DNA from: Bacteroidetes bacterium 37-13
GTDB lineage: Bacteria > Bacteroidota > Bacteroidia > Chitinophagales > LD1
Direction of reading: 5' to 3'
Length of the DNA: 64,000 nt
Assembly: GCA_001897535.1 (NCBI GenBank)
Contig: MKTC01000031.1
Location: 140,428 to 204,427 of the forward strand
The notes under the pieces were generated by a model. The model did no database searches. It had not been told where the DNA came from and saw only the letters and a list, made by a program, of their open reading frames with translations. A program made the position numbers and the translations under genes. Position 1 is the first letter of the stretch, and every line of letters starts with the position of its first letter. Below are positions 56,041-57,254 of the stretch, in pieces.

Positions 56041-56161
56041 ATAGTGATTTGCGGATATGTGTTTGTCTATCCCAGCAAGGTTATCTACTGATAAAATATA
56101 CAATTTGTAATGTGAAAGGAAAAACAAAGTGAAAATAAATTAGGCACTCCAAAAAAATGAC
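56041..56161. other. intergenic sequence upstream of the fic gene
   Basis: Between the end of the methyltransferase relic and the fic promoter I see no further gene, repeat or clear structure in this AT-rich stretch. Confidence 0.5.
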
Positions 56162-56188
56162 TATATTTGTCATGACATAATTTGTCAT
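56162..56188 (+). promoter_or_regulatory. promoter and operator repeats of the XRE-Fic gene
   Basis: TATATTTG (56162-56169) fits the -7 element. Overlapping it is the perfect palindrome TGTCATGACA (56168-56177), and TTTGTCAT occurs twice with a 15-bp step (56166-56173 and 56181-56188), the second copy ending one base before the ATG (56190). GACA-TAATT-TGTC forms a second inverted pair. This is the expected layout for repression by the gene's own XRE domain. Confidence 0.6.
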
Positions 56189-56189
56189 A

Positions 56190-57254
56190 ATGAAAACAAT
56201 AATTGAAACTAAGCGCGAACTGTTGGGACTAAAAGTATTTGAGTTGGCAAATCATGTAAAGATTGATGCCAGCTTAATGAGTAGAATTTTAAATGGAAAA
56301 CGTGAGCCATCAGATGAGCAATTACTACAATTATCTCAGTTATTAGCACTTGATTACGAAGAGTTGCTAAAGGAAAAAATGATACGCAAAGTTACATCCG
56401 TTTTAAAAGATTATCCTGAAATAGCTGAGGAAGTTTTAACTGTGGCAGAGAAGCGTATTTCTTATCTCTTGAGCGAAAATAAGTTGGAGGTAATAGATAT
56501 ATCATCTATTCAAGCAGAATTAAAAGTATTAACCGAGTTGCAGGCAAGATGGAAAAAGAAAAAGCCGCTTAGCAGTTTACAACTAAAAAAAATGTTGGAG
56601 TATTTTCATACGCAATACACTTACGAAAGTAACCAAATTGAAGGTAATACTTTGGATTTTCAAGAAACTCATTTGGTAGTGAATGAAGGTATTACCATTG
56701 GTGGTAAATCCATGCGCGAACATTTAGAAGCTATTAACCATCAAGAGGCTATCGGGTTTATTGGCGAATTGGCAACCCAAAAAGGAGCATTTAACCAACA
56801 AGTGTTACTGCAAATTCATCAACTTATTTTAAAAGGAATTCAGCCCCGAAATGCAGGAAAATATCGTTCTGTTCAAGTTCGTATTTCCGGCAGTAAGCAT
56901 ATTCCTCCGGAGCCGTATTTAATTGAGGATATGATGCAAGATTATTTTCTGTTTTATGCACATCGGAAAAAGAAATTACACCCAGTAGTTTTGGCTGCCG
57001 AAATGCATGAACGCCTTGTTTCTATTCATCCATTTATAGATGGCAACGGCAGAACTGCACGTTTGGTAATGAACTTAATTCTTTTACAACATGGCTATCC
57101 GATTGTTAGTTTAAAAGGCGATTTAGCCAATAGACTTCGTTATTATAAGGCGTTAGAAGCAGTGCAAGTAGAACACGATAGAACCGATTTTTATCAACTT
57201 ATTGCAGAAAGAACTAAACATACTTTGTTGGAGTATTTAGCAATGGTGAAATGA
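56190..57254 (+). CDS. Fic domain protein with N-terminal XRE DNA-binding domain
   Basis: 354 residues. An XRE helix-turn-helix at 1-60 (LLGLKVFELANHVKIDASLM, then SRILNGKREPSDEQLLQLS) precedes a Fic_N-like linker and the Fic core. HPFIDGNGRTAR at residues 280-291 is a perfect match to HPFx(D/E)GNGRxxR. SNQIEGN at residues 147-153 fits the inhibitory (S/T)xxxE(G/N) motif placed N-terminal to Fic, so a class II, self-inhibited enzyme. Fic proteins transfer AMP (or other nucleotides) to target proteins. No antitoxin gene is adjacent. Operator-like repeats over its own promoter suggest autoregulation. Confidence 0.92.
   Translation: MKTIIETKRELLGLKVFELANHVKIDASLMSRILNGKREPSDEQLLQLSQLLALDYEELLKEKMIRKVTSVLKDYPEIAEEVLTVAEKRISYLLSENKLEVIDISSIQAELKVLTELQARWKKKKPLSSLQLKKMLEYFHTQYTYESNQIEGNTLDFQETHLVVNEGITIGGKSMREHLEAINHQEAIGFIGELATQKGAFNQQVLLQIHQLILKGIQPRNAGKYRSVQVRISGSKHIPPEPYLIEDMMQDYFLFYAHRKKKLHPVVLAAEMHERLVSIHPFIDGNGRTARLVMNLILLQHGYPIVSLKGDLANRLRYYKALEAVQVEHDRTDFYQLIAERTKHTLLEYLAMVK

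What the first reader, a model, noticed from the sequence alone, without database searches (positions are those of the whole stretch)
56162..57254. Self-inhibited Fic enzyme with its own DNA-binding domain and operator
One protein carries an XRE domain, an inhibitory SNQIEGN helix and an intact HPFIDGNGRTAR site, and its promoter and start codon are covered by TGTCATGACA and repeated TTTGTCAT. This would be a one-gene toxin-antitoxin-like switch in which DNA binding, inhibition and AMPylation may be coupled.
Basis: partly seen in the sequence, partly recalled or inferred. Interest (0 to 1): 0.58.

Follow-up and report, generated by a model that had tools for sequence, protein, structure and literature searches.

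The report
Self-repressing Fic enzyme, conserved tandem operator
A bacterial enzyme that tags proteins with AMP carries its own DNA-binding domain and very probably shuts off its own gene by sitting on a paired DNA site that contains the gene's promoter box, an arrangement kept in its relatives across a large bacterial phylum.

Summary
Window 56190-57254 encodes a 354-aa Fic protein with an N-terminal XRE domain, the class II inhibitory motif SNQIEGN (E151) and an intact HPFIDGNGRTAR site. The conserved unit is ATGAC-N7-GTCAT, present twice (O1 56157-56173, O2 56172-56188, 15 bp apart); TGTCATGACA is the junction between them. O1 contains the Bacteroidota -7 box TATATTTG. These are the only two exact copies in the 3.12-Mb genome.

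Exact TGAC-N7-GTCA lies just upstream of 31 of 34 XRE-Fic genes and of 36 of 43 further named ones. It is absent from Fic relatives lacking XRE: 0 of 15 and 0 of 33. The second site recurs at exactly +15.

Best explanation: a self-inhibited AMPylase that represses its own promoter. Coupling of DNA binding to catalysis is plausible, since FICD's dimer-relay residues are conserved, but untested. CccR (Fic plus C-terminal HTH) and CbFic2 already represent this kind. What is new here is an N-terminal XRE, FICD-like branch with a deeply conserved tandem operator. Toxicity, target and binding are unshown.

The parts
56157..56173 (+). Operator O1, ATGACTATATTTGTCAT (ATGAC-N7-GTCAT palindrome) enclosing the -7 promoter box
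   Evidence: coordinates; one of only two exact copies in the genome; conserved upstream of XRE-Fic genes only
56162..56169 (+). Predicted sigma-A -7 box TATATTTG (consensus TAnnTTTG)
   Evidence: Sequence; consensus and -12 to -5 position from passages of PMC9723704; box in register inside O1 in 58 of 77 XRE-Fic loci
56172..56188 (+). Operator O2, ATGACATAATTTGTCAT, 15 bp downstream of O1, over the predicted transcription start and ending one base before the start codon
   Evidence: second site recurs at exactly +15 in relatives
56168..56177 (+).
56174..56174 (+). Predicted transcription start (inferred: box at -12 to -5), giving a 16-nt leader
   Evidence: Inference passages; no transcript data
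56190..57254 (+). CDS, 354 aa, XRE-Fic protein
56199..56372 (+). XRE (Cro/C1-type HTH) domain, residues 4-61
   Evidence: sub-threshold in this member; 33 of 33 members HTH_31; helices 2-73, pLDDT 91-95 in the ten-residue blocks of residues 1-80
56628..56648 (+). Inhibitory motif SNQIEGN, residues 147-153, E151
   Evidence: S147, N148, I150-N153 invariant in 33 of 33; motif in 43 of 43 named relatives
56664..56666 (+). E159, counterpart of the FICD dimer-relay residue Glu242
   Evidence: at least 90% conserved; for FICD
56706..56714 (+). K173-S174-M175, counterpart of FICD Lys256 (relay) and Leu258 (dimer interface)
   Evidence: K173 33 of 33; position 175 M/L/V/I in 33 of 33; for FICD
57027..57062 (+). 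Fic catalytic motif HPFIDGNGRTAR, residues 280-291
   Evidence: H280, P281, F282, D284-T289 and R291 invariant in 33 of 33

Best explanation
A single-gene, self-inhibited AMPylase that is also its own transcriptional repressor. The XRE domain, acting as a dimer, binds two 17-bp palindromes 15 bp apart. O1 hides the -7 box and O2 hides the transcription start, so rising protein shuts its own promoter. At the protein level, E151 of the N-terminal inhibitory helix blocks productive ATP binding (class II Fic). Steps supported here by sequence: domain make-up, intact inhibitory and catalytic motifs, operator anatomy, its promoter overlap, its conservation with the XRE domain and its uniqueness in the genome. 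Inferred steps: actual binding, repression, AMPylation, and its release by a signal. It may also switch by dimer state as FICD does (relay residues kept). Its target is unknown.
For: Exact TGAC-N7-GTCA within -100..+5 in 31 of 34 XRE-Fic loci, against 1 such site in 130,014 b elsewhere in the same loci. In the named set, largely fresh (dropped only where the upstream 60 nt were identical), 36 of 43, against 1 in 280,894 b elsewhere. In Fic relatives without XRE, 0 of 15 and 0 of 33. -7 box TAnnTTTG in register inside O1 in 58 of 77. O2 at +15 scores 5.82 of 8, against a background of 1.99 (sd 0.33); 0 of 2000 shuffles reach it. Both exact genome copies of ATGACN7GTCAT lie here. Some departures keep symmetry: L032 AGAC/GTCT and L141 TGCC/GGCA, and L053 TGAT/ATCA. 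E151 and catalytic residues invariant in 33 of 33. Best solved relatives by sequence and by fold are FICD. Precedent: CccR, a class II Fic with HTH that represses itself through palindromes (PMC9755527 passages).
Against: No binding, expression or enzyme data. Ten of 77 loci lack an exact palindrome at this place (3 of 34 and 7 of 43); several of these have a one-mismatch or symmetric variant, but L134 has none near the start. Two named members have changed catalytic motifs (L126, L141). AlphaFold places the inhibitory region 143-160 at pLDDT under 50. The operator could in principle be bound by another protein or could activate rather than repress.
Confidence: 0.8

Rival explanations
1. Uncoupled version: the XRE domain only sets expression level, and AMPylation is regulated independently through E151, as was concluded for CccR. 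(This is a variant of the best explanation without dimer coupling, so the confidences are not exclusive.)
For: CccR dimer mutants lost repression but kept toxicity and AMPylation, and its authors call the two activities independent (PMC9755527 passages). FICD-type relay residues are kept also in Fic-only relatives: Einh+8 Glu in 31 of 33 and the GK motif in 26 of 33, so they do not depend on XRE.
Against: CbFic2, another Fic with HTH, does change activity on DNA binding (PMC10628234, abstract and passages). The relay is intact here.
Confidence: 0.5
2. A one-gene toxin-antitoxin or anti-phage module: release from self-inhibition arrests the cell under stress or infection, as for SoFic.
For: PADLOC SoFic profile matches at E 1.1e-33 and candidate PDC-S04 profiles at up to 3e-25. 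E-to-G changes in class I-III Fic proteins were toxic to E. coli in published work (PMC3667792 passages).
Against: The SoFic profile match covers the shared Fic part only, and NCBIfam SoFic scores 43 against a cut-off of 550. No partner or defence gene recurs next to it, and Flavobacterium members keep one housekeeping neighbourhood. No full-length XRE-Fic among the best 80 of 142 relatives in viral contigs, nor among the 2 phage-record matches.
Confidence: 0.25
3. The palindromes serve another regulator, or XRE-Fic controls a wider regulon of which this is one site.
For: XRE proteins are common, and G000 has another related XRE domain, fused to what looks like a DNA methyltransferase (L002).
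Against: Exact sites occur nowhere else in G000. The operator tracks the presence of the XRE domain within the Fic family. The methyltransferase-like gene has a different upstream palindrome. Of 30 TGACTANNTTTGTCA sites fetched from 396 genomes, the 9 with an XRE gene downstream are all XRE-Fic; the other 21 are unrelated genes.
Confidence: 0.07
4. Chance A/T-rich palindrome upstream of an ordinary Fic gene.
For: TTTGTCAT is not enriched in the window.
Against: Conservation and controls.
Confidence: 0.01

Closest known systems
CccR of Yersinia pseudotuberculosis (PMC9755527, passages read)
   Same: Class II Fic AMPylase with its own HTH; represses its own gene by binding palindromes near its promoter boxes as a dimer
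   Different: HTH is C-terminal; secreted effector that AMPylates FtsZ; a different Fic branch. Here the XRE is N-terminal, the Fic core is FICD-like, and the operator is two overlapping 17-bp palindromes with the -7 box inside one
CbFic2 of Coxiella burnetii (PMC10628234, abstract and passages read)
   Same: Class II Fic with HTH; DNA binding proposed to induce a dimer and switch AMPylation to deAMPylation
   Different: C-terminal DeoR-type HTH and DUF4172; tested with random DNA, no own-operator reported in the passages read; acts on histone H3
FICD/HYPE and C. elegans FIC-1
   Same: Closest solved relatives (E 1.8e-38, residues 125-346; also top by fold); same inhibitory IEGN and dimer-relay residues
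   Different: TPR and membrane anchor instead of XRE; ER enzyme acting on BiP
SoFic (Shewanella) and the anti-phage Sofic
   Same: Class II Fic; PDB 3EQX is named a Fic domain containing transcriptional regulator
   Different: C-terminal winged HTH; per PMC10628234 DNA binding of SoFic was not shown; Sofic has a separate downstream antitoxin AS1 (PMC12249575 abstract passage)
Two-gene XRE + Fic pairs (Fic_Doc with xre, 22 in a PMC2701414 table; B. finegoldii plasmid NZ_OY725926.1)
   Same: XRE regulator and Fic enzyme at one locus
   Different: Separate genes; the plasmid pair uses a different XRE

Membership tests
Class II Fic AMPylase | Inhibitory motif (S/T)xxxE(G/N) N-terminal to the Fic core | tested here: met
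   SNQIEG at 147-152; 33 of 33 in A1, 43 of 43 named relatives
Class II Fic AMPylase | Canonical HPFx(D/E)GNGRxxR site | tested here: met
   HPFIDGNGRTAR at 280-291; invariant residues in 33 of 33; 41 of 43 named relatives
Class II Fic AMPylase | AMP transfer repressed by the inhibitory Glu | not testable with these tools
   Needs protein
FICD-like Fic | Sequence and fold closest to FICD; relay Lys256/Glu242 and hydrophobic 258 kept | tested here: met
   K173 33 of 33, E159 at least 90%, position 175 hydrophobic 33 of 33
FICD-like Fic | Monomer AMPylates, dimer deAMPylates | not testable with these tools
   Known for FICD (PMC6826200 passages)
XRE (Cro/C1) transcription regulators | Cro/C1-type HTH recognised by curated models | tested here: met
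   Window protein itself just below the cut-offs; family 33 of 33 HTH_31 and 32 of 33 HTH_3 at E<=0.001
Autorepressed Fic-HTH (CccR-like) | Palindromic operator over the own promoter | tested here: met
Autorepressed Fic-HTH (CccR-like) | Binding and repression shown | not testable with these tools
   No binding data
Autorepressed Fic-HTH (CccR-like) | C-terminal HTH, same subfamily | tested here: not met
   XRE is N-terminal; so it works like CccR but is not filed as a CccR orthologue
Type II toxin-antitoxin pair | Separate antitoxin gene in the operon | tested here: not met
   No co-oriented partner recurs in most of 43 loci; the next ORF in the window is an amidohydrolase
SoFic anti-phage family (NCBIfam NF046030) | Curated score cut-off | tested here: not met
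   43.3 bits against 550
mobile mystery protein B (TIGR02613) | Curated score cut-off | tested here: not met
   42.7 bits against 124.4

The most novel reading that the evidence does not exclude
Promoter occupancy and enzyme activity are two read-outs of one dimer switch. The XRE-Fic dimer bound to O1/O2 is the AMPylation-off (deAMPylating) form. Low concentration or a nucleotide signal that splits the dimer both frees the promoter and turns AMPylation on, and the newly made protein restores the off state. That would be a one-gene, self-resetting AMPylation pulse generator conserved across Bacteroidota.
Probability: 0.25. Interest if true: 0.75.

Novelty: new variant of a known kind. Interest (0 to 1): 0.5.

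Why it matters
What releases class II Fic enzymes from self-inhibition in bacteria is open. This family offers a compact, experimentally tractable case: the enzyme's probable own operator is defined to the base, is conserved, and can be added to a pure protein as a possible allosteric ligand. It also gives a simple handle (TGACTANNTTTGTCA in front of a Fic gene) for finding members across Bacteroidota.

Tried and rejected
TGTCATGACA as the operator: rejected as the wrong register, because the conserved palindrome is TGAC-N7-GTCA.

A regulon: the exact 17-mer pattern occurs only here in G000. The shorter TGACTANNTTTGTCA was found in 60 of 396 order genomes with no consistent XRE gene apart from XRE-Fic; the reversed control column also shows many hits, which I did not tally (30 of the matches were fetched and read).

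A conserved partner gene: none found in 43 named loci. XRE gene just upstream of Fic-only genes: 1 weak reverse-strand hit among 34, so split pairs are not the rule there.

Named relatives from a single-sequence query: none confirmed; the alignment query worked. Phages and viral contigs gave only Fic-only or partial relatives.

Single origin of the fusion: the tree needs 4 changes of the label, at least 2 forced by well-supported branches, so one gain with several losses and more than one gain are both open.

The half-site versus recognition-helix comparison showed both nearly constant; too few variants to prove co-variation.

Rows dropped before counts: L064 left out of A1 because it has no usual start codon (kept in the operator counts); 3 XRE-Fic and 1 Fic-only named loci dropped as identical upstream duplicates; one named XRE-Fic row (L107, a truncated copy by length) and two Fic-only rows left out of the tree for length or missing motif. 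The two Fic-only control sets overlap in part (for example L035 and L153 lie on contigs of equal length), so they are not added together. L160 had only 2 bases upstream, and L165 gave a 14-aa frame; both are counted in the 33.

Full report
What is there. The ORF at 56190-57254 encodes 354 residues. Pfam finds Fic (PF02661, 1.1e-23, residues 201-298) and sub-threshold XRE-type HTH matches over about residues 5-61. In the family, 33 of 33 members match HTH_31 and 32 of 33 match HTH_3 at E<=0.001. The closest solved proteins are human FICD (1.8e-38, residues 125-346), C. elegans FIC-1 and Bacteroides BT_2513, PDB 3CUC. A model from 33 sequences has mean pLDDT 82.8. The XRE part is confident (blocks at 91-95) but the inhibitory region 143-160 is not (mostly under 50). 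Foldseek ranks FICD first. The gene is single copy in G000, a 3.12-Mb genome.

The operator. The upstream DNA reads ATGAC-TATATTT-GTCAT followed, sharing two bases, by ATGAC-ATAATTT-GTCAT. O1 is 56157-56173, O2 is 56172-56188 and the start codon is at 56190. These are the only TGAC-N7-GTCA sites in the 64-kb window and the only exact ATGACN7GTCAT sites in the genome. O1 holds TATATTTG at 56162-56169, which fits the TAnnTTTG -7 box of Flavobacterium sigma-A, placed at -12 to -5 in PMC9723704 (passages). This predicts transcription start at 56174 and a 16-nt leader (inference). I saw no clear upstream (-33) element.

Conservation test. Relatives came from 60 related genomes (9 with E<=1e-30), 396 order genomes (25 with E<=1e-70: 21 XRE-Fic, 4 Fic-only) and 395 phylum genomes (18: 14 XRE-Fic including the window, 4 Fic-only), giving 34 XRE-Fic loci and 15 Fic-only loci (7 of these). 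Exact TGAC-N7-GTCA stands in -100..+5 in 31 of 34, with one more such site in 130,014 b of the same loci, and in 0 of 15 Fic-only loci. A second, named set from genome contigs (80 loci; Flavobacterium, Lishizhenia, Fluviicola, Belliella, Pedobacter, Ferruginibacter and uncultured Bacteroidota) gives 36 of 43 XRE-Fic and 0 of 33 Fic-only, with 1 site in 280,894 b elsewhere. Over all 77 loci, 58 have the -7 box in register inside the palindrome. A second site stands at exactly +15. Its mean match is 5.64 of 8 in the first set (25 loci) and 5.82 in the second (33 loci), against a background of 1.99, with 0 of 2000 shuffles as high. Its right half is exact GTCA in 27 of 58. Departures from O1 are partly symmetric: L032 AGAC/GTCT and L141 TGCC/GGCA, and L053 TGAT/ATCA. 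Ten of 77 loci lack an exact palindrome there. L128, L109 and L028 have one mismatch, and L134 has nothing near the start.

Enzyme conservation. In the 33-row alignment E151, H280, D284, N286, R288 and R291 are invariant. Of 43 named relatives, 43 keep the inhibitory motif and 41 the catalytic motif; L126 and L141 carry changed motifs. FICD switches from deAMPylating dimer to AMPylating monomer through a relay that includes Lys256 and Glu242, with Leu258 in the interface (PMC6826200 passages). The counterparts here, read off the alignment, are K173 (33 of 33), E159 (at least 90%) and M175 (hydrophobic in 33 of 33). In the named set the Glu is kept in 40 of 43 XRE-Fic and the Lys motif in 43 of 43, but Fic-only relatives keep them too (31 and 26 of 33), so the relay belongs to the FICD-like branch and not to the XRE fusion.

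Context. No partner gene recurs in most of the 43 named loci. Seventeen share an upstream gene and 15 a downstream gene, which I read as smpB and pcm from memory of their sequences, so these members look vertically inherited. In the window the next gene is an amidohydrolase, hutI-like in my reading. A same-genus genome without the Fic gene has a different neighbour there. A Bacteroides finegoldii plasmid carries a different XRE, a FICD-like Fic and a second Fic as three adjacent genes. A tree of 74 rows places the window protein with Crocinitomicaceae XRE-Fic proteins and needs 4 changes of the fused label.

How it works. Best supported: XRE dimers on O1 and O2 close the gene's own promoter, while E151 holds the enzyme inactive. 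Shown by sequence and conservation: domains, motifs, operator, promoter overlap. Inferred: binding, repression, catalysis, target, signal. The boldest open reading is that the DNA-bound dimer is also the AMPylation-off form, as proposed for CbFic2 on DNA (PMC10628234) and reported for dimeric FICD.

What is known. Fic-HTH fusions were noted in 2009 (PMC2686095 passages). CccR is a class II Fic with C-terminal HTH that represses itself through palindromes (PMC9755527 passages). CbFic2 is switched by DNA. So the kind is known. I found no paper on the N-terminal XRE-Fic family or its operator; the searches were in the open-licence PMC library only, which leaves out most subscription journals. I therefore call it a new variant of a known kind.

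Noticed in passing
L002:1477-2808 (G000 contig C17): The same genome has a related XRE domain (40% identity over residues 6-95) fused to what looks like a DNA methyltransferase (443 aa; my reading of the sequence), with a different upstream palindrome-like stretch TTTGCCA-N5-TGACAAA near its start.
   Followed up: partly
window 5825-57380 against L264: In a same-genus genome the genes matching window 4.4-5.8 kb lie next to hutI, whereas in the window about 51 kb lie between them: a rearrangement or insertion with the Fic gene at its edge.
   Followed up: partly
L037:3962-5602 (NZ_OY725926.1): Bacteroides finegoldii plasmid with a phage tail gene carries XRE, FICD-like Fic and a second Fic as three adjacent genes in one direction, perhaps a two-Fic module.
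   Followed up: partly
L126, L141: Two XRE-Fic proteins have changed catalytic motifs (HPFIDRNGRTSR and HPFIDGNGQTSR) but keep the inhibitory motif; possibly regulators that lost catalysis.
   Followed up: no
L064 (G529): XRE-Fic gene with intact operator but ATA where relatives have the ATG start codon.
   Followed up: no
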